A DNA stretch of 64,000 bases from Gymnopus androsaceus JB14. Lineage: Eukaryota; Basidiomycota; Agaricomycetes; Agaricales; Omphalotaceae. The translations under genes and the position numbers were made by a program. The stretch is from the NCBI GenBank assembly GCA_009733575.1, contig ML769405.1:246919-310918 (forward strand), in the 5' to 3' direction. Under the pieces are notes generated by a model. It saw only the letters and a list, made by a program, of their open reading frames with translations, had not been told where the DNA came from and did not search any database. Below are positions 12,864 to 29,300 of this stretch, piece by piece; positions within the stretch are counted from its first letter, which is position 1; every line of letters begins with the position of its first letter.

Positions 12864-15800
12864 TCAATCCATTTTATACCCTTCATAAATTGAAGAAATG
12901 TCTACTGTACGTTCGCCAGGCTTGCCTTCCACTGGCCTGTGTTCCATTTTTAATTGATTAAGTACGGATGCATGTGCTGCAAACCGTGGAAGAGTCACAT
13001 ATGTTCCTTTACCATGGTCCAAACCCATCCCGTCTTTTACAACTTGATGCAGCTTCAGCTCATTGCTGCTTTTTTTCCACAACTTGGAAAGCTCCGACAG
13101 CCTCCATTTTGTCTTATGGATAAGTTCTGAGAACAATACTGCAGAGGTTTTGGTATGGGGCAGTTTTGTGTTGAGCTTTTCTTCTGTTGGTGGACTACCA
13201 CTTGGACCTAGAAAGTTGAAATATTAAGCAGGAAAAACAGCTTGGCTGTGTATTGTTGGCTCACCAGTATTGGAAGGAAAAGGGGGACTCGGACTCCATT
13301 CATTCCCTACTACAAGCTGAGTGCGGTCTCTATCAAAAATATTGTAGACTTGATTCTAGTGTAATTGAATATTTGTTTATGAGGAGGGTGTGATCAAGCA
13401 AGAGGCAAACATACTGAAGTCACAATGACAAGGCCCATTGAAATTTTTTTGCCCTTTAAAGCTGTTTTTATTTGTAACTGAGTTTGAACATCTACTGTCA
13501 GGGAGATTATGCACTGATCCTGGAGCAAAAAAATCTTTCAATAGTATTCTATGAAGTCATTGGCAAAATTGAACATACATTTTTTAGCTTATTAAATGCT
13601 CCATTTCCCTTAAAAACAGAAAGGTTGTATTCAGCTTGAACTTTTTGAGTAGTCTGGTCTACTGTGAGTCCCGAATTTATCTGTTCTTCATTCACAGATA
13701 TCATCATTTGACTAGATTGAGTTTTAAAATTGTTGCTTGTATGAACTTCTCCCAGGTCGCAGGAAGCAAGCCAAATGTCTCGGATCTTGAATGACAAGGA
13801 AATTAGTATACATTTAGTATTAGTATGGTGACAAGTTGCATTCATTACTGACTGTGGGATCAGCATGGGTGACTGAACGTGCTCGGGTATGAGTGAATCC
13901 CACTCCTCCAGTGAAATGCACTCCAGTTGATCCTCCCACATTGCCATTGTATGCATTTGTAATGGTTCTACCAACAGTAATATTTGTCTGTCGTTTAGGA
14001 TTGTGAATGTCAATTGGATCCCTTGATATGTATATCAGTATGGCTGTGTAAATATTTTACCCAAATGGCTTACAATTTGTCCTCGGTGAGGTGTATCTCT
14101 CCCATTTCGACCTTGCTAACAATGTGGGCATAGCTGGTATGGAAAGTCACATTTTTTGTTTGCCCTATAGCTTCAAGTGAAATGGTTGCCTTGAGAAGTG
14201 GGTCTAATGATCTGGCACCCAATATATCAAGAGGATACTAAATTGCACAAGAGGTAATTCATCAGACTTCATATCTCAGAAATAAAAATTGAAGTGACTC
14301 ACATCAATACTACAATTTATTTTTAAGCCCACTGTTTCAGCATTCTTATTAGGCCATATATTGATAAGTCTGTGGAAATGGTGTGTTGTTGATTCAAGAC
14401 TGGATATATCACCATCAGGTGGTTCACCGCCTACAGTGGCCACCACATTGTCATGTTCACTGCTAGTGGATGCTTCTGCTTGCTTTTGCTCCACTGAAGT
14501 GAGGATGATATTATTATCTGGTTCTGGCTCCTGAGTTGATACTGAAGACCCTTGTGACAATGTTGATGAGTGATCAAGATCAGGATTGTTTGAAAGACTT
14601 GGAGCTATGCCTTGAGACCCACTGGCTGTTGTTTTACTTTGTGTGCTGGTATGCTGAGGAAGATTGGAGCTATCTGCCCCTGCTGTTAACCTATAAATTA
14701 GAGGAATAAGTCAATGATTGTTCATAAATGTCAACTAGAGGTTATACACACATGACTAATTCTGATTTGGGAAGTACAAAAACAGGCAAATTGGACCTGT
14801 CAGAAAGTGCTTGAACATAGGTTTGGGAAAATGTTTCTCCAAAGACAGCTAGTCCTTGTTCTCCATAAGCCATCACCCAAGGATAGGGACCTAAAATATT
14901 TTCTTGTTCTGGGGCATTTCCTTCAGAGCTTAGGAAATCAAGTCCCTTGTTGGGATACATAAGGCAAATTTGGTCGTCATATATTTCCAAAGCAGGGATT
15001 TGAGTTGATGGTGAGCTATATCAATGTCATTATTCATTTACAACAAAAAGTTAATACGGCACTCACATAGTTGGCCTGAAAATATAGAATGCATATTCAC
15101 TGTTGTCTTCTAGGTTATCAGAGCCTATGATATTGTACTTAAAAAAGTTACCAAAAGAGCTTGCAATATTGGCAAAACCTGTATATGCTAGACAATGTTT
15201 TACAATGCTAGACAGCACCCATATAAGCATAGCAAAGCTACCCATTGTAATGTACTGCACAGTACTGTATAGCACTTCACAACAGTGTAAAATGCCTGAT
15301 TGCAGTTGGGTGGGATTGCCATAATGAATGGCCAGATTTGGCTGATGCAGAGCATAGGCCTGGTCAGAACCACCTTGCTGGGCACCTAGAGTGGCATCCA
15401 AAATCCCAGTGACACTCTGGACATCATTAGACTGAGACATGAAGGCATTATTTAGGCTGTTCAGCAGTGAAGGTTTGTCAATATGGCCATCAGGTGTGAG
15501 ATCAGCTGCTTTCTGGTAACAAGCTATTGCCATCTGAATATCATCATGCACACCTTGGTGATCAAACCTTGACTGGAATAAATTTCCAAGGTTGGTCAAA
15601 AATGAGGCTTTTTCATGCTCATCAAGAGTGAGATCAACTGCTTCCTGGTAGCAAGAAATGGCTCTTTCAATGTCATTGAAATCTTGTAGATGACTGATTA
15701 AGGCAGCACCAAGATTGCTTAGCATCTCAGGTCTATCAGTATGGCCTTCAGGAGTGAGATCAACTGCTTGCTGGTAAAAATCAATGGCCCTGTTGATGTC

Positions 15801-18275
15801 CCTAAGTTCCCCCAGACAGTCAAATTTTAATTCATAAGCATATCCAAGGGTATGCAGCAGAGAAGGTTTGGCAGCATGACCATCGGATGTGAGTGCAACT
15901 GCTTGCTTCCCAGCTTCAATGGCGGTGTCAAGGCCAATCAACAGTGAAGACTTGGAAGTATCACTATTGGGTGTAAGCTCAACAGCCTGATTCTTGGCAA
16001 TGATGGCACTCTCGATATCATTGAGTTTCCCAAGTTGGTGGAATTGCAATAGAAAAAAATGGCTAAGGCTATTCAGGAGGGAGGGCTTAACAGCATCACC
16101 ATCAGGTATGAGTTCAACTGCTTGCTTGACATTGTCTATGCTACTAAGGTCCTCTAGGTGGCCAAATTGAGCCTGTAAGCCCCTTACAAGGCTGTTAAGC
16201 AAAGAGGGCTTGTCAGGATGGCCATCAGGTGTGAGCTCAACTGCTTGCTTCATGGCCACAATGGCACTTTCCATGTCACTAAGTTCACCCAGATGACTAA
16301 ATCTTTCTTGATAGGCATGTCCAAGGTTATTCAACATGCCTGGTTTATCAGCATGACCATCAGGAGTGAGTTCAACTGCCTGCTTCAAGGCCAAAATGGC
16401 ACTCTCTATGTCACTGAGCTCTCCTAAATGGCCAATGGCTTCTCCAGTCTTTGCATTCCAGATCCTGACTGTCTTATCATTTGAGCCAGATACAATTCTC
16501 TCTCCATCTGGAGAAAATGCAACAGAGTTCACAAAATGAGCGTGGCCTTCAAGAGGCTCACCAATGGCTTCTCCAGTCTGTGCATTCCAGATCCTGACTG
16601 TCTCATCATTTGAGCCAGATACAATTCTCTCTCCATCTGGAGAAAATGCAACAGATCTCACATAATCAGTGTGGCCTTCAAGAGGCTCACCAATGGCTTC
16701 TCCAGTCTTTGCATTCCAGATCCTGACTGTCTGATCATTTGAGCCAGATACAATTCTCTCTCCATCTGGAGAAAATGCAACAGAGGACACAAAATGAGTG
16801 TGGCCTTTAAGAGGTTCACCAATGGCTCTCCCAGTCTTTGCATTCCAGATCCTGACTGTCTGATCATATGAGCCAGATACAATTCTCTCTCCATCTGGAG
16901 AAAATGCAACAGAGGACACAAAATGAGCGTGGCCTTCAAGAGGCACACCAATGGCTTCTCCAGTCTTTGCATTCCAAATCATGACTGTCTGATCATCTGA
17001 GCCAGATACAATTCTCTCTCCATCTGGAGAAAATGCAACAGATCTCACATAATCAGTGTGGCCTTCAAGAGGCTCACCAATGGCTTCTCCAGTCTTTGCA
17101 TTCCAGATCCTGACTGTCCTGTCATCTGAGCCAGATACAATTCTCTTTCCATCTGGAGAAAATGCAACAGAGGACACAAAATGAGCATGGCCTTCAAGAG
17201 GCTCACCAATGGCTTCTCCAGTCTTTGCATTCCAGATCCTGACTGTCTGATCATATGAGCCAGATACAATTCTCTCTCCATCTGGAGAAAATGCAACAGA
17301 GTTCACAAAATGAGTGTGGCCTTCAAGAGGTTCTCCAATGGCTTCTCCAGTCTTTGCATTCCAGATCCTGACTGTCTCGTCACTTAGTTCACTCAGATAG
17401 CCAAATCGTGCTTGATAGGCTTTTCCAAGGCTATTCAACCAGCGAGGTTTGTCAGCATGACTATCAGGTGTGAGTTCCACTGCCTGTTTCATGGCTGCAA
17501 TAGCATTTTCCATATCATTAAGGTCTCCCAGATGGCCAAATCGTGCTTGATAGGCCTTTCCAAGGCTATTCAACATGCCAGGTTTATCAACATAATCATC
17601 AGGTGTGAGTTGAAGTGCCTGCCTTATGGCAATAATGGCACTCTCAATGTCACTAAGTTCTCCCAAATGAGTAAACCGTGCTTGGTAGGCTTTCCCAAAG
17701 CTATGCAGCCTGCCAGGCTTATCAGCATGACCATCAGGTATGAGTTGAACTGCCTGTTTCAAGGCAATAATGGCACTCTCAATATCACTAAGTTCTCCAA
17801 GATGGCCAAACCGTGCTTGATAGGCTTGTCCAAGGTTATTCAACATTCCTGGTTTATCAGCATGACCATCAGGAGTGAGTTCAAGTGCCTGCTTCATGGC
17901 AACAATGACCTACTCAGATCTTATCAGTGATGTTTACAAAGGCTTCCTGTAAACTGAAACATACTTTCATCTCCTTCTCTGGATCAGGCATGACTTCTCC
18001 ATGGTGCAGCTCCATAACTGCCTCATTTGAATCCTTCAATGACAAAGATGATATGATTAAAGCTTTCTCAAGCTTGTCTTGATCCTCCACATTGAGTGAG
18101 GTATTCCTCATTGTCTACAATGAAATTATTAGTAGATGTTTGATGTAATGCCTATTTATTTACACACCAATGCACTACCTACCTCTGCTTCAGGTTGTTC
18201 CAGTGACATGTTGATGGCTCCCTTAAATTGAATTTCAGCATCTCCTACCTCTGCCTCAGGTTGTGCCGATGACAT
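12864..18275 (-). CDS. TPR protein with internal seven-unit WD40 array and novel C-terminal region
   Basis: This is a multi-exon gene of about 1,600 codons. Exons 18275-18183, 18114-17965, 17909-15067, 15015-14752, 14690-14303 and 14237 onward join in phase, then several smaller exons lead to the last one (about 13208-12864). The N-terminus holds a duplicated DAEIQ...INMS...QPEAE unit. From 17909 come four 45-residue TPR units (KQA-E-LTPDGHADKPGMLNNLG type). A WD40 block (16431-17381) follows, then about eight more TPR units of decreasing similarity. A hydrophobic stretch (FAMLIWVLSSIV) ends the TPR part. The last 600 residues carry a Gly-rich beta-like region (VGGSTGVHFTGGVGFTH) and a basic tail. 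TPR and WD40 repeats are protein-binding scaffolds. No NACHT or CHAT motif was seen. A role in recognition or signalling is inference. The start codon choice is uncertain. Confidence 0.75.
16431..17381 (-). repeat. WD40 coding array, 7 x 129 bp plus 48 bp
   Basis: The length is exactly 951 bp: seven 43-residue units (D-x-TVRIWNAKTGEAIG, then GH, then SVAFSPDG-RIVSGS) plus a 16-residue half-unit that completes the last blade. This is enough for one closed seven-bladed propeller. Units are almost identical in DNA, with changes concentrated in the residues after GH (THFVN, AHFVS, TDYVR) and after SGS (YDQ, DDR, NDE, NDK). Confidence 0.85.
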
Positions 18276-18572: not shown

Positions 18573-19636
18573 CTTTTATATTCTTTCAGGTCCCGCTTAG
18601 TCAAATGCATGAGCAATGAAGAAAACAATGAGACATCTCATTTACATATCATCTCATTCTTATTGGCTGGCTCGTGAGAGAGTTCTCACGACTGTGAGAC
18701 TGTCCACATCCTAAGCTAACCAGCCGTACCAGTGCCAGCTCTACTTGGGCGCTCGGAAAGTGACGGTCCGCCTGTATTTTTTGATTATCTCATGAACGAG
18801 TCCAGATTTTTGCATGAGGTCTTTTATGGATCTAAGGAGTAGCATGTTCTCAATTTTCCAAAATGAGTTGCAAAGCCATCCTATTAAAAGTACTTTCTAT
18901 ATCAGGTAATTTCTCTGTTTTCAAAAAAATGTGAAAATATAACTTGCGAAATAATTTTTTTTGAGCTTTTCCGTGCCCACCATTCGAGAGAGGGACATCA
19001 AAAACCCCCTAACGCATTTTATCCCATAAGATTGATTGACAATTGACGATTGACGGATTGCATAGTCCTCCAGTCCGGGTGATCAGAGCACAAAGTTCGT
19101 GTCCTTGCTTTCGCGTCCTGTTTATCCGCACCTTTTATCGGTTTTCCCCTATTGGGTGGACGCTAGTGCTTGTAAGATAGTCGCAGAACAGTTCCGTCTG
19201 GCGTCACGTGCAGTCTCTCAACTTATGGAGCCACAACGAGGTCTTTTCTCAAAAAAATGGCCTTGGGCATCGCTAGAGACCTATTTTCGCTAGCCATGCC
19301 CAAGGCTCTTTTTTTAAAAAATGCCCTTGTTGTTGTTCCATTGGCGATATACGTTGCGCAAAGTCATGTGACGCCGGACGAAACTGTTTTGCCACTATCT
19401 TATCCACAAGGCAGGTTTGGATATCGCCTCAGTCGCTCCGGATCCGCTCTCCTAGCAGCCTATTTTCGTACTCTGTCTTCCAATGAAGATCATCAACGTG
19501 ACAAAATGCATGATGATGATGATTGGCCTGGCTAATCCTCGGATGGCTCCTAGATACTCAATACCCCGCCTGAGAGCGAGTCGTTGCTTGTATACTACGT
19601 GTTTCCCTGGTTGAACAAGAATTTGAATTTTGTCCA
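18573..19636. other. gene-free stretch with a foldback hairpin
   Basis: No supported gene. The notable structure is a hairpin at 19251-19315: GCCTTGGGCATCGCTAG (19260-19276) pairs with the inverse at 19290-19306, with one mismatch. It is flanked by A7 and T7 runs that extend the pairing. Confidence 0.5.
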
Positions 19637-23428: not shown

Positions 23429-24893
23429 TCATCTCCCCAGTCCATTCGCTCGTCTTCTTTGCCAGTCATCCGCCCAGCCACTATGGCCTTGCACATTTTT
23501 CATCAGCTCCAATAGAACCTCGTGGCTCAACTCGACCTCCTCCTCCTCGTCAGAATCCTCCAACTTGCCTCCATCCTCCTCATCGCTATCTGCATATCCA
23601 CCCAGTAGCGATAGACCATTGTTCGAAACTTCCTCCTTCTCTTCTTCTTGGTCCGATTCGTCATTGCTTCTATACCCTCCCAACAATCCCGAGATAGCTT
23701 CTTGCCAGCTTTCAGATCGATCTTTTCGGCGTTTAGCTCTCCTCTCCACATCCTTGCTCGACTCTACGAGATCCCCTCGCTCGTAAACCAGCTGCTGGCC
23801 CATTCCAAACATCCCTTGCGAATGCGTTTCCGCGTCTTGGTCGGCTACCACACCAGAGAATTCGCCCTGTGGCCATAACTCCAAGGTCGGGAATTCGACA
23901 AAGTGTGTGTTGCGTAAAGCAGCGAGAAGCGGTTCGGTAGGGATGACGCGATGGAATGCTGCTTTGGGTCGTGTGCCGGTTATGGTCAAGGAAATTGGGG
24001 ATATAGGTGCTCGTATGAAACTATCAAAAGGTGAAAACATGGTGTCGTCCTGCGAAATGGGTGTTGTCGAGCTAGTCATAGGTATTTCCTCGACGAGTTG
24101 TAAAAGCCAAGGAGGGAAAAAGCTATTGACGGACTGCTCTTCCGCTTCTGCTTCCGCATTCGCCTTTTGTTTGCCTTTGGCCTTTTTCAACTCGAGATTG
24201 CGGCGCTCCTGTACTTGATTCCTGATGATGGAAAGCAAGGAGAGGTTAAGATTGTTACGATGGGTAAACAGAGTGAACGATGATTGCTTCGACTCTCGCG
24301 GAGGATAGAATCTAAACTCGATTGTGAGATTGGCCGTTTGATTTCTATGGTTATTCAACGTTTGTATATTATGATAGATAGTTGGACAAAAAAAACGTAC
24401 TTGAAATCCCAACTCGACTGATTATGCTGTCGTCGTTCCATTCCAACTGGAAGCAAGTCCATGAATATATCCCGCATTTCGAGTTGTGCTTTTAATATAT
24501 CTCGTTTAGTTTTGGGAGGACCTCTTGGATTATTCCACCGACGCGACCTCGAGGTTTTCCTCCTCTACCGCGCCAAGTCTGATTAGTATTATGATTATTA
24601 TTCGCATAAGACCCTTTCCCTATAACCGCTCCCCATTCTTCCACCTTCCGTCCAACCTCTTCCAAATACGTGTAATCACTCATCATGGTGCCCCATCCAT
24701 ATTCTTTCAAGTTCACGAAAGCAGCCTTGTCTCGTTCACCAGAGCAGTTCATCGTGGATTTATGGCTGGATGAGCAGGGAAGAGAGCAGGTTTTGATTTT
24801 GCATCGAGGGCAGGTGTATATGGCGTAACGAGCATTGCAAATGGTGCATAAAGTACGAGAAGACCCTGGAGCCGAGCTGGCAGTCTCGGACAT
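23429..24893 (-). CDS. BCD1: box C/D snoRNP assembly protein BCD1 (HIT zinc finger), one indel
   Basis: BCD1 (human ZNHIT6) is a nuclear factor needed for box C/D snoRNP assembly. The start at 24893 is followed by a HIT-type zinc finger (CTIC, then CPRC, then CSLPC, then H and C) within residues 17-50. Next come the family strings FVNLKEYGWGTMMSDYTYLEE, here split by reading, and RDILKAQLEMRDIFM. Intron 24400-24345 joins in phase to the second exon (24344-23429). That exon contains the FRFYPP segment and a long acidic C-terminus (SDEEDGG, SDEEEEVELS). Between the Gly/Arg-rich linker and NNPRGPPKTKRD the frame slips by one base at about 24540, too short a distance for an intron. I read this as a one-base deletion, probably an assembly error. 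It is convergent with Med18. Confidence 0.82.
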
Positions 24894-25081: not shown

Positions 25082-26057
25082 TTAAATATCATCCATTCCA
25101 AAGTCAATCTCGACCTTTTCACCTGGTTTGAACGCAGGCAATCCTAACGGATATCAATCAATGAACGAAGCAGCGCACGACTAGAACAAGAAGCTCACCA
25201 AGGTATGGACAACCAGCACAACGGAATGCATCACCCAGGAAGCAATTACCGCAACTACTAGTCGCTTTTGATGCAGCCTTGGCCGCCTGTATCAATCTAT
25301 CCTTCTCTTCGCCCTGATTCACCTCTACTGCACTCCCATCGACTTTACCATCAAGCAGAACGACCTTGCTGTTCTTGAGCTCCTCCGCTTCGAGCTCAGC
25401 CAGCCCACAAGTGCAGTTCTTACAAGCCCGCTTGCGCCGAGGAGCAGACTCTGATGCAGGCTCACAAGTGGGAATTGGCCGTGCTTTGTCTGCATCGGTG
25501 AGAAGAGCATCGGGATCGATAGTAGGTGTCGACGGTGCATCTGGTGAGAGTGCCCAAAGAGCCTTCTTCTTCGCAGGGTCAGTTTTTTGGCGTTTAAGCA
25601 GACGAACGGAGCCTGCAGCCGAATGAGCAGGCTTTTGAGCGATCATCGTGGAAGAAGTGGTATTCAATAGTGTGAATCCGGAGATCGTCAAGGCAGAGGT
25701 GAGAGGAGTGAGGTCGGATGCGGATAGATTGAGAAGATGAAGAGTGCCCAGCGGTGCAAGACCAGCAAGGAGCTGGGACAGAAGGAGAGAAATGTTGGGA
25801 AGGAGGGAAAAGTACTCGGATGGAGTCAGGGTAATATGCACTGAGGCATATGTAGAAGGTGTTAATGTCGTTGCCCCATCGACTAATCTGTCGAGAAGCT
25901 GTCTCTCTACAGTCCTCGAGCCTTCTAGATCGGATATAAGTGCTTGATATTTTCCATCCTGTGCTGTGGACAAGGAGCCAATAACAAGCGCTGCACCCTT
26001 GGAAGGGACCGCGGCGGGCACTGCAGCTGGTACAATCTCTACTGCTGTAGGGGACAT
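25082..26057 (-). CDS. DRE2: Fe-S cluster assembly protein Dre2 (anamorsin/CIAPIN1)
   Basis: Dre2 works in the cytosolic iron-sulfur assembly machinery, receiving electrons from the diflavin reductase Tah18. Two exons (26057-25199 and 25143-25082) give 306 residues. The N-terminal half is a methyltransferase-like domain ([19 protein letters not shown] onwards). The C-terminal half has both cysteine motifs: CEP...CKNCTCG for the [2Fe-2S] site, and CGNC-x7-CAGCPYLG, which is the conserved C-x2-C-x7-C-x2-C motif. The last exon encodes [15 protein letters not shown], typical of the family, and ends DDI. The start [10 protein letters not shown] is preceded by an in-frame extension with no conservation. 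The frame is intact. Confidence 0.92.
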
Positions 26058-26323
26058 TTTTGTGGTTCGAGTGCAAGAGTGTGCTGACTGAGTCTGACTG
26101 ATTTTCTTCGTCATCAAATCTTCGGCCGACCAAGTGATCGGCTGGAAAAACCGATAGCCAATCCTCCTGGTTCACTCTACGGAGGTGAACATCCATTTCT
26201 TTGCGCCCAGAAGACTACTTGTCAATATGAACTTTCTCATTAAAATTTCTCATTAATCTCGTTACTTTGTTATGTACATAGTTCCAAGCTCCGATCATAC
26301 ACTGCGAAAGAAAATATCATCAA

Positions 26324-29300
26324 TCAAACGTTGCAGAACGAGCGGAGAACAACGAACCCATATGCATATTCGACTTCATCAACACCCTCTCCAGCCGCGA
26401 ATGCAGATTGTTCACGGGGAGCATGGGTAACCTCTTCCTCTTCTTCTACATCTTCATCGTCGTCCTCTAACCCAGTACCATCGTCAACATCGAGCCCGAA
26501 AGGTTTCACCGGTCGAAGACCACCTCCCGAACTCGTTCTTCTCTTGCCTGCAGGGGATCTACCAGCAGGTGATCTACCCGCTGGTGATCGTCCAGCAGGG
26601 GACTTGGGAAGTGCTGCCATGGTTTTTGGGCTCATGTGCTGAAAAAGTGCGTTGGTAAAGGTACTAGTCAACATAGCCATGGACTCACCTCCCAGTTGTT
26701 CAGATTTTCATCTACAACATCTGGATCATCACGACTTGGATCCAACCGAGTTTCGTCGCCCAAATCGCCAATAGTGACAATACTCTCGCTATCACTAATA
26801 CCATCCGCAATATCTGCTGCAAACTCTGCTGGGAAGCGTGCCCATGCAGATGTTCCGCTAAACAGAGCATCTGTTTGTTCATCTGACCATCCGAGATCAG
26901 AGATGTACTCTTCGTATTCTTCCTCAAAGCTGATGTCTTCGGGGATGTAAGGCAAGAAGATGGAGGGATCTGGAGCCTGGGAGCGGGCAGGAGGGAACAC
27001 ATCGGCATCGACGATGTTTGGGGTGCCTATCGGCCGTATAATACCTGACAGCTCGGGTCCAGGGTGAAGACCTTCAATGTGGTTGTTGGACATGCTGCCA
27101 GTTCTACGGTGCAAGGCACTATGCTGATTCGTTGTGGGATTAGGACCATATCTCTTGTTGTTGTCTAGACTGTCGTGTCAGTAAAAACACGGCCGTTAGA
27201 AGACAGACTCACAAAACTTGACAAGATGTCGCAGAGCTTGCTCCTGAGCCTGGAAATAGTAAGGTTGTTAGAAGGACAGCGAATACAAGGCAGCGCGCCT
27301 TACCGATGCGTCGGTGACATCGTCAACTTCTGTACCGGTTAACCATTCGTCACGAAGATCAGGTCGACAATTGAGGTAGATCGCAGTGATGACCTTCATA
27401 TTCGCTGTTAACGGTTAATAATATTGTTCTTCAAGTGAAATATCTTGCAACTCACTTTGCCTCCATTTGCGTCCACAGAACGGCACTTGACTCTTGATGA
27501 GTTTCAAAAGATGCAATTGAAGCATCGGGTGCTGGACCCTAAGCATTCGTTTCAATACCGCCTAATGAACATTATTGTTAGAAATGTGCGAGGAGAATCG
27601 ATCATCCACTCACTGAGCTTTTGTATTGTACAAGCATCCAGATTCGATGTGAGCGGTTCTTTGACAACTTTTGCATAATCTTGGCAAAATTAATCGTCGA
27701 GAAAAAGTTTCGCCATGAAAAATCGGTGACCATCTCAACCTCTTCTTCATGTACCTCGCCGTTAGGAAGAGTGACAGGTTTCATGACGGTATGCCGCGGA
27801 GGTTTGTTCACATTCATGGAGTCTTCGGGTCGTATCTGTTGCGAAACTTTGGAGAAGTTCAGGTAACAATACCGGAAGAAGCTACATGTGGATGGTATAA
27901 ACAAAGTGCGATCTGTCATGAAGCCTGAACACGTACTTGTTCTCCGGAGAATCCGCTCTTGAAACGAGCGCAGTGGAAACTTCCTGAAGGCCGAACATCT
28001 TGAGCAAGAGCAATAGACAATTCGTATCAAGTAAAAGTTGGCCCAGATGGTGAAATTTCATGACATCTAGACGAGCGGCCATAAGAACAGAACAAGAACG
28101 ATCAGGACGAAACCTACGAGAAACCTTGAACCACTTCAAAACAGTTAGCAATATCGCAGATACCGCTTTGGAAGTAATCTCTCTGTGACGAGTCACGTCT
28201 ATCTCATCCAGAGTCTGCGGGGGCGCGGGCTGGTCTTGCGGTGGGGCTGTATATGGACGTTAGCACCTAGACAAGTTCATTATTTTCAACTTACGCGACC
28301 CGACACCAGGAGGAAATACGGCGGATGTCGTGGATTGTGGCACATTGGTACCTGCCGAAACAGTGGCCAAAAGGAGTTTGAGCAAGACGAGAACCCATCC
28401 CGATAGGACTGGTAAAACTGAGCTCTACGTGACAGATGAGGAATGAAAAAGATTGCCAGATCAAGAAACTCACATAAATCTGTTCCACACGTTTGAGACG
28501 CATCAAATCTTCCCTCCTTTCCTTGGCTTTGCGCTTCTCACTTGATGTCTCAGCCTTCTCCAATGCAGCAGTGGCTTCTGCGATCTTGGCATCCAGTAAC
28601 GCAAGATCTGGTAACGACTCTGCAGTTTCCGCGTCTTCATTAGCACCGTCGTCTTGAGCGGAGGGATTTGTATATGTCGAGGAAGCGAATTCTCCCTCCG
28701 ACCCAGGTAGGTGCTCAAGCCCGCTCTCATGAGTCATGCAGTCCTCCCTCGTACGCCACATTTGCATAAGAGCAAGGCTGACGTACATGTGCCGATTGTA
28801 CAATTTATCCGCCTCGTCAATGGCAAAAGGAACAAGCTTAGCAGCTCTTCCTTGAGTTTTCGAAAAAGGGAACAAAAATGGGCGTGACTGGTCCGTCTGG
28901 TATTGTTGCTTTTTAGGCTTGGGACCAGGAGGTGGCGATGGAGCGGGAGTAGCCGGTTGTGGATTGGGGCGGAAGGAAGAGCCGTTATTCTGGAAGGGAG
29001 CATTGTGAGGATGAGTAGAGTGAGAGTCGTCCTCGGTGTGATAATGATGGCGAACGGGAATTGGGGAGTAAGCTTGAGCAAGTTTGGAAGCGGCCTGCAC
29101 CGAAACGGGTTGAAGGACGGGGGTCTCCACATCTGCGGGCGGTGGCTGAGGGGGAACAAAAGTTGGATATTTGACATATGTTTCTTGCCTGAAAGCTTCA
29201 ATATCCAAAGGACTCGACTTGATACGTGGTCGTAGCTATATATTAAATTCAAGTTGATGAAACAGCTGGGACGAGGTATAGACGTACATTGTTCTGCTTC

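What the first reader, a model, noticed from the sequence alone, without database searches (positions are those of the whole stretch)
15067..17909. WD40 propeller nested inside a TPR array in one exon
Four TPR units, then exactly 951 bp of WD40, then eight TPR units. Both junctions fall at the same TPR loop (LSELSD before, HLGELSD after), so the loop motif is duplicated on either side of the insert. Fungal repeat proteins usually place such arrays one after the other. Insertion of a complete seven-blade propeller into a superhelix loop, in frame, looks like a new architecture.
Basis: partly seen in the sequence, partly recalled or inferred. Interest (0 to 1): 0.82.

Follow-up and report, generated by a model that had tools for sequence, protein, structure and literature searches.

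The report
Immune-receptor propeller transplanted into TPR gene
In a litter-decay mushroom, a gene built of helical TPR repeats carries, in frame and in its middle, a seven-unit WD40 array that looks recently copied from the fungus's own immune-receptor genes; it appears in the assembled DNA as a single chimera whose product and function are untested.

Summary
Exon 15067-17909 (minus strand) encodes 4 TPR units, 948 bp of WD40 (7 units of 129 bp plus a leading partial) and 8 TPR units in one frame. The same gene is public (P0001, BT96DRAFT_876203, Gymnopus androsaceus JB14). That protein lacks exactly three WD40 units at a gap that cannot be GT-AG, so repeat number is uncertain.

The gene is a chimera. 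Its N-terminal exons and TPRs resemble the fungus's TPR-CHAT genes, but CHAT is absent and the C-terminus is an orphan. The WD40 array is 92-93% identical in DNA to NACHT-WD40 receptor genes of the same genome (dS 0.03-0.07); the TPR flanks are far more diverged from paralogs (dS 0.51-0.76). Six variable codons fit the spacing of Podospora HNWD recognition sites. Junctions share up to 3-4 bp with relatives; the "duplicated loop" is not a target-site duplication (14/21).

It is the only nested case among 232 listed proteins and among listed matches in its genome. AlphaFold models propeller and leading TPRs well, the junctions (with the leading strands) poorly. I call it a young chimera: a new variant of known kinds, function unproven.

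The parts
12867..18275 (-). whole gene as mapped from public protein P0001 (1481 aa): 12 pieces separated by 10 GT-AG introns and one 387-bp non-canonical gap; 11 exons if that gap is not real
   Evidence: exact mapping of all 1481 residues
17965..18275 (-). exons 1 (18168-18275) and 2 (17965-18114): N-terminus shared with TPR-CHAT-type genes
   Evidence: 22 other DNA matches (67-93%) on 16 contigs, for a query that includes introns; P0025 and others align here; no Pfam family
15067..17909 (-). the exon with TPR - WD40 - TPR and the start of the orphan C-terminus
17379..17909 (-). four TPR units before the insert
16431..17378 (-). WD40 array: leading partial unit plus seven 129-bp units
17379..17382 (-). 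left junction; TGA shared by TPR and WD40 relatives (TGAC in one of six WD40 relatives shown, which differs at the next base)
16432..16435 (-). right junction; TTGG shared between WD40 and one of the three best-matching TPR copies; most other copies shown share less
15438..16430 (-). eight TPR units after the insert, several irregular
16917..17303 (-). one of 12 equivalent placements of the 387 bp (three WD40 units) absent from the public protein
12867..15437 (-). orphan C-terminus (end of the big exon and eight further exons); no CHAT or other Pfam family, no relative found

Best explanation
A gene of the TPR-CHAT type captured, in frame, the variable WD40 sensor array of a NACHT-WD40 immune receptor (NLR) paralog from the same genome. 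Origin (supported by sequence comparison): the array's nearest relatives are NLR-type genes on contigs C138 and C235, the flanks' nearest relatives are TPR genes, and the array is much closer to its relatives than the flanks are to theirs. Route (inferred): illegitimate or template-switch recombination, perhaps at 3-4 bp of microhomology, followed by unit gain and loss in the array. Structure (predicted in part): the array starts with the c and d strands of a blade and then has seven a-b-c sets, so the leading d strand could close the last blade as in ordinary WD40 rings; the propeller would hang on two flexible linkers between two stretches of TPR superhelix. Function (inferred, weak): the propeller adds a variable recognition surface to a TPR scaffold without a CHAT caspase-like domain and with an orphan C-terminus, so any output would be by binding or by that C-terminus, not by CHAT or NACHT.
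For: Array 92-93% identical over 946-947 of 948 bp to stretches of C235 and C138; the next long match is 76%. Pfam on the ORF before the array at one C138 and the C235 locus: NPHP3_N 4.2e-32 and 3.6e-32, NACHT 1.3e-8 and 2.6e-8 (the second C138 locus has a similar ORF, not scanned). dS to the three loci 0.034-0.074, versus 0.51-0.76 between the TPR flanks and six distinct paralog segments. The N-terminal region has 22 other matches on 16 contigs, all 16 also among the contigs with TPR matches; paralogs P0025, P0005 and P0128 carry CHAT; none of 11 TPR-type paralogs aligned has WD40 at the insertion point. Shared bases at the junctions: TGA left, TTGG right in the best case. In the seven units six codons vary most (3, 4, 5, 7, 23, 25), with pN 0.332 versus pS 0.068 there and pN 0.019 elsewhere. 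AlphaFold: residues 201-440 mostly 82-94 pLDDT.
Against: No transcript, protein or phenotype evidence was available. The public protein has four full WD40 units, too few for a seven-blade ring. The low dS of the array could come from continuing gene conversion with the NLR genes; it was also measured against the best of many registers in long arrays. The six codons were read from the same data as the pN/pS values, position 3 is no more variable in the donors than positions 19 and 37, and the signature may be inherited. The microhomology was picked among several relatives in five loci; the chance values 0.051 (3 or more) and 0.016 (4 or more) are for one fixed pair, so the real chance is higher. 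The leading strands 174-193 that should close the ring and the right border 485-493 are below pLDDT 50, residues 441-480 are at 68-80, and pTM is 0.41.
Confidence: 0.7

Rival explanations
1. Assembly or annotation artefact: the assembler joined a WD40 array into a TPR gene, or the array length is wrong.
For: Near-identical WD40 arrays are not reliably assembled from Illumina reads, and such assemblies can omit or create repeats (PMC12222747, section read). Assembled DNA and public protein, apparently of the same contig, differ by exactly three units with no GT-AG border.
Against: Repeat-driven misjoins need long shared sequence; TPR and WD40 relatives share only 3-4 bp at the junctions. Both junctions keep frame, and TPR units continue on both sides. 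The public protein contains both junctions too, but it is not independent, being apparently from the same contig. How this genome was sequenced is not stated in the passages I saw.
Confidence: 0.12
2. A non-functional, short-lived chimera (gene debris): repeat arrays recombined, the frame survived by chance and the gene is not maintained. This concerns fate and is compatible with the capture origin above.
For: One copy; CHAT absent; orphan C-terminus; no relative with the same order found.
Against: No stop in a 944-codon frame; the public protein maps through 10 introns with GT-AG borders; TPR flanks show dN/dS 0.13-0.27 against paralogs, although most of that divergence may predate the chimera.
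Confidence: 0.4
3. A conserved, purpose-built nested architecture present in several fungi.
For: Helix pairs around the insert stay intact in the model, and a closed propeller is plausible from the strand order.
Against: Of 232 proteins listed by two searches only P0001, the same gene, is nested. Not exhaustive: 120 of 7988 and 120 of 227 hits were listed, and other fungal genomes could not be searched. P0177 and P0214, whose precomputed Pfam lists hold both repeat kinds, show TPR-like sequence after the WD40 array (read by eye).
Confidence: 0.08
4. Insertion by a mobile element, with the loop motif as target-site duplication.
For: The loop motif occurs on both sides.
Against: The two loops agree at 14 of 21 bases, below the average of 18.0 between TPR loops of two paralogs, although the array itself is 92-93% identical to its relatives. 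I ran no dedicated search for terminal repeats or transposase at the borders.
Confidence: 0.03

Closest known systems
NACHT-WD40 NLR paralogs of the same genome (contigs C138, C235) and the Podospora HNWD family (HET-E, HET-D, HET-R)
   Same: Near-identical WD40 units (129 bp here, 126 bp in HNWD); six most variable codons whose spacing fits HNWD positions 10, 11, 12, 14, 30, 32 with an offset of 7 chosen by fit; in HNWD unit number is labile (PMC2873952: 95 of 109 and 27 of 34 mutants had fewer repeats, section read).
   Different: No NACHT found; the array sits in the middle of a TPR gene; 7 units where functional HNWD alleles usually have 11 (PMC12222747 abstract).
Fungal TPR-CHAT proteins (P0025, P0005, P0128 of the same fungus)
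   Same: 45-residue TPR units; P0025 and P0128 also share the N-terminal sequence.
   Different: No CHAT domain; WD40 inside the TPR array; orphan C-terminus.
Highly repetitive beta-propellers amplified from single blades (PMC9218822, passages read; its example KAE9403162.1 is from G. androsaceus JB14, 15 blades)
   Same: Apparently the same strain; near-identical WD40 blades.
   Different: That example has 15 consecutive blades; the passages I saw describe no propeller nested in a TPR array.
Proteins with WD40 followed by TPR, probably bacterial (P0177, P0214)
   Same: Both repeat kinds in one protein (precomputed Pfam lists).
   Different: One array after the other, not nested.

Membership tests
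NACHT-WD40 NLR / HNWD type | NACHT or other STAND NTPase domain | tested here: not met
   No NACHT or NB-ARC match in the TPR parts of the exon, the N-terminus or the 576-aa C-terminus
NACHT-WD40 NLR / HNWD type | WD40 units of high internal conservation | tested here: met
   7 units, 109-126 of 129 bases identical between pairs; the last unit's final codons are already TPR
NACHT-WD40 NLR / HNWD type | hypervariable codons at the recognition sites | tested here: met
   Positions 3, 4, 5, 7, 23, 25 differ in 48-76% of unit pairs, four other positions in 29% (one unit each); the seventh HNWD site (39 = 32 here) does not vary noticeably; offset chosen by fit
NACHT-WD40 NLR / HNWD type | triggers recognition-dependent cell death | not testable with these tools
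   needs genetics
fungal TPR-CHAT protein | CHAT domain at the C-terminus | tested here: not met
   No CHAT in the exon's C part or the rest; a search with residues 780-1481 of P0001 finds only itself
fungal TPR-CHAT protein | shared N-terminal exons and 45-residue TPR units | tested here: met
seven-bladed WD40 propeller | seven a-b-c-d blades closed by the N-terminal d strand | tested here: inconclusive
   Strand order in the model fits, but the leading strands are below pLDDT 50 and no coordinates were available; WDR5 chains align along about residues 12-309 of 316 by sequence; the public protein has four units

The most novel reading that the evidence does not exclude
The recognition array of an NLR has moved, within one genome, into a receptor-like scaffold of another class, in frame and in the interior of a solenoid, giving a hybrid sensor with both TPR and hypervariable WD40 surfaces. 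If functional, fungal sensor arrays would be exchangeable cassettes across receptor classes, and interior loops of solenoids would be acceptable docking sites.
Probability: 0.3. Interest if true: 0.68.

Novelty: new variant of a known kind. Interest (0 to 1): 0.42.

Why it matters
Repeat exchange between NLR genes of one family has been reported; here an array seems to have crossed into a gene of another class, in the middle of another repeat array. It gives a testable case of how new receptor architectures are born, and a warning that a gene model and its assembly can disagree over such arrays.

Tried and rejected
Target-site duplication by a mobile element: disfavoured by loop identity. A 387-bp GT-AG intron behind the public protein: rejected, none of 12 placements fits. 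Ubiquitin-interacting motifs that I thought I saw by eye in the N-terminus: no Pfam match, not claimed. A membrane helix in the orphan C-terminus (residues 885-903, Kyte-Doolittle 1.52): borderline, not claimed. A gasdermin neighbour, as reported for some CHAT genes (PMC12881547, passages): Pfam on 10 of the 17 window ORFs of 200 aa or more gave matches for 3 (BCD1; CIAPIN1 with DRE2_N; DUF3402) and none for 7; this is not a full gene annotation. NCBIfam: no match of the exon passes its curated cut-off; P0025 passes one, TPR_END_plus.

Papers: seven searches. In PMC4986451 the phrases 'WD40 and TPR', 'TPR and WD' and 'chimeric' do not occur. None of the titles, abstract starts, passages or sections that I read describes a WD40 array nested in a TPR array; most papers were seen only in a listing. 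That WDTC1 mixes WD40 and TPR is recalled and was not checked in a text.

Limits: all three protein searches are used; other fungal genomes could not be searched; no reads or transcripts were available; fold search was off, so the model was not compared with known structures.
Full report
What is there. The minus-strand frame 15063-17897 is open for 944 codons. It reads four TPR units (residues 1-173), a WD40 array (174-489; 16431-17378, 948 bp) and eight TPR units, then a stretch without recognised repeats. The WD40 part is seven units of 43 residues preceded by a partial unit; pairs of units share 109-126 of 129 bases, and Tandem Repeats Finder gives 7.3 copies at 93% matches.

The gene and its source. 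The best protein match is P0001, BT96DRAFT_876203 of Gymnopus androsaceus JB14. All 1481 residues map onto window 12867-18275(-). I saw the protein, not its annotated exons; my mapper allowed only GT/GC-AG introns plus one 387-bp skip in the array. It found 10 introns, all GT-AG, and needed the skip. The window lies on contig C23 of an 83.3-Mb assembly, and C23 is 405,382 bases long, the length listed for P0001's contig, so window and protein appear to come from one assembly (inference). The skip is exactly three WD40 units, and none of its 12 equivalent placements is GT-AG. So DNA and protein agree on both junctions but not on the number of full units, seven or four. My guess is a transcript contig or correction with collapsed repeats; an allele with four units is possible. 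PMC12222747 (abstract, section 14 and passages read) shows for Podospora that such arrays are recovered from long reads but not reliably from Illumina assemblies. The Agaricales genome paper PMC8480192 says that its new genomes were sequenced with Illumina and PacBio (passages); I could not see which applied here, or whether this genome was among the new ones.

Where the parts come from. A query from the N-terminal exons and their introns has 22 other matches on 16 contigs, and the TPR units match many places. Paralogs P0025, P0005 and P0128 carry a C-terminal CHAT domain. In an alignment of 14 sequences none of the 11 other TPR-type paralogs has WD40 at this point. The gene itself shows no CHAT: the C part of the exon matches TPR families and no CHAT, and the rest has no Pfam family. 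The C-terminal DNA has one place in the genome, the C-terminal protein matches only its own locus there, and a protein search with residues 780-1481 finds only P0001 (candidates limited to about 815-2590 residues).

The WD40 array matches stretches of C235 and C138 at 92-93% over nearly its whole length; the next long match is 76%, and a few shorter ones reach 77-82%. The ORFs before the arrays at one C138 locus and at C235 have NPHP3_N and NACHT domains; a second C138 locus has a similar ORF that I did not scan. By simple Nei-Gojobori counting against the best-fitting register, the array differs from the three loci at dS 0.034, 0.043 and 0.074 (dN/dS 2.64, 2.09, 1.17), while the TPR flanks differ from six distinct paralog segments (three left, three right, from eight loci tried) at dS 0.51-0.76 (dN/dS 0.13-0.27). 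Either the array arrived recently or it is kept similar by gene conversion.

The junctions, compared with five fetched loci. On the left, TPR copies match up to TGAC at 17379; six WD40 relatives share TGA, one of them TGAC, and three of the six differ at the first base after the junction. On the right, WD40 relatives match through TTGG; one of the three TPR copies that tie for best (68 of 70) also has TTGG, most other copies shown share less. Under a random model for one fixed pair, 3 or more shared bases have chance 0.051 and 4 or more 0.016; since I could choose among relatives, this is weak support for microhomology. The loop motif on the two sides agrees at 14 of 21 bases, less than usual between 30 TPR loops of two loci (18.0 +/- 1.5; 0.7% of pairs at 14 or fewer), so it does not look like a fresh duplication. 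By my own arithmetic two random breakpoints in codon phase would fall within 7 of 45 residues of each other about one time in three, so the coincidence of loops needs no special cause.

Variable sites. Among the seven units six positions (3, 4, 5, 7, 23, 25) differ in 48-76% of pairs, always by a nonsynonymous change; four others (16, 28, 33, 36) in 29%, each by one unit. Among 37 units of three donor loci 4, 5, 7, 23 and 25 stand out at 55-76%; position 3 is at 25%, no more than 19 (30%) and 37 (29%). For the HNWD family, positions 10, 11, 12, 14, 30, 32 and 39 are used for their high dN/dS (PMC12222747 passages); an offset of seven, chosen by fit, gives the six, and the seventh has no counterpart. 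At the six codons pN is 0.332 and pS 0.068, elsewhere pN 0.019 and pS 0.057; the codons were chosen on the same units, so these values describe and do not test.

Structure. AlphaFold2 on an 11-row alignment gives mean pLDDT 72.6 and pTM 0.41. Residues 201-440 of the WD40 part are mostly 82-94 (two blocks at 70 and 79), 441-480 at 68-80; the first TPRs (1-160) 82-91 except one block at 71; the later TPRs about 51-91. Segments 168-193 and 485-493 and the end 823-944 are below 50. The strand order (c, d, then seven a-b-c sets) would let the leading d strand close the last blade; this is inference from order, and just these leading strands are poorly modelled. No coordinates were available and fold search was off. 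By sequence the array aligns to WDR5 chains along about residues 12-309 of 316.

How unusual. Of 232 distinct proteins listed by two searches, 13 have TPR only, 217 WD40 only, and two have both: P0001, nested, and P0082, with one weak TPR match after its WD40 array (120 of 7988 hits listed, 120 of 227). My TPR model is fungal and misses other TPRs: P0177 and P0214 carry TPR-like sequence after the WD40 array. Other fungal genomes could not be searched.

Verdict. The nested gene is real at the level of the assembled DNA and best explained as a young in-frame capture of an NLR recognition array by a TPR-CHAT-type gene that also lacks CHAT. Each part except the orphan C-terminus is of a known kind; the combination is new in what I could search. 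Whether it is a working hybrid sensor or debris of repeat recombination is open.

Noticed in passing
window 19173-19402: A 230-bp element with long imperfect inverted arms (61 nt at 75% and 55 nt at 80%) and 26 other matches at 80-99% in the genome, a few of them partial: a MITE-like element. At G000:C23:244956-245185, just outside the window, a copy of the surrounding sequence lacks it (an empty site).
   Followed up: partly
window 18900-19033: A 134-bp stretch matched on several contigs, often as inverted pairs about 140 bp apart (for example C325, C16, C2, C190): probably another small repeat element.
   Followed up: no
window 16917-17303: Public protein and assembled DNA differ by exactly three WD40 units without GT-AG borders; the same kind of error may affect other near-identical repeat genes of this annotation.
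   Followed up: partly
window 12867-15066: Orphan C-terminus spread over eight exons, with no relative found in the protein search or the genome.
   Followed up: partly
G000:C138:24147-25076 (L005): One NACHT-WD40 donor-type array on C138 contains a TGA inside the matched stretch, so this receptor copy may be truncated or interrupted by an intron.
   Followed up: no
window 23429-24412, 25158-26117, 28291-29208: ORFs in the window match BCD1, CIAPIN1/DRE2 and DUF3402: the chimera shares its region with ordinary conserved genes.
   Followed up: no
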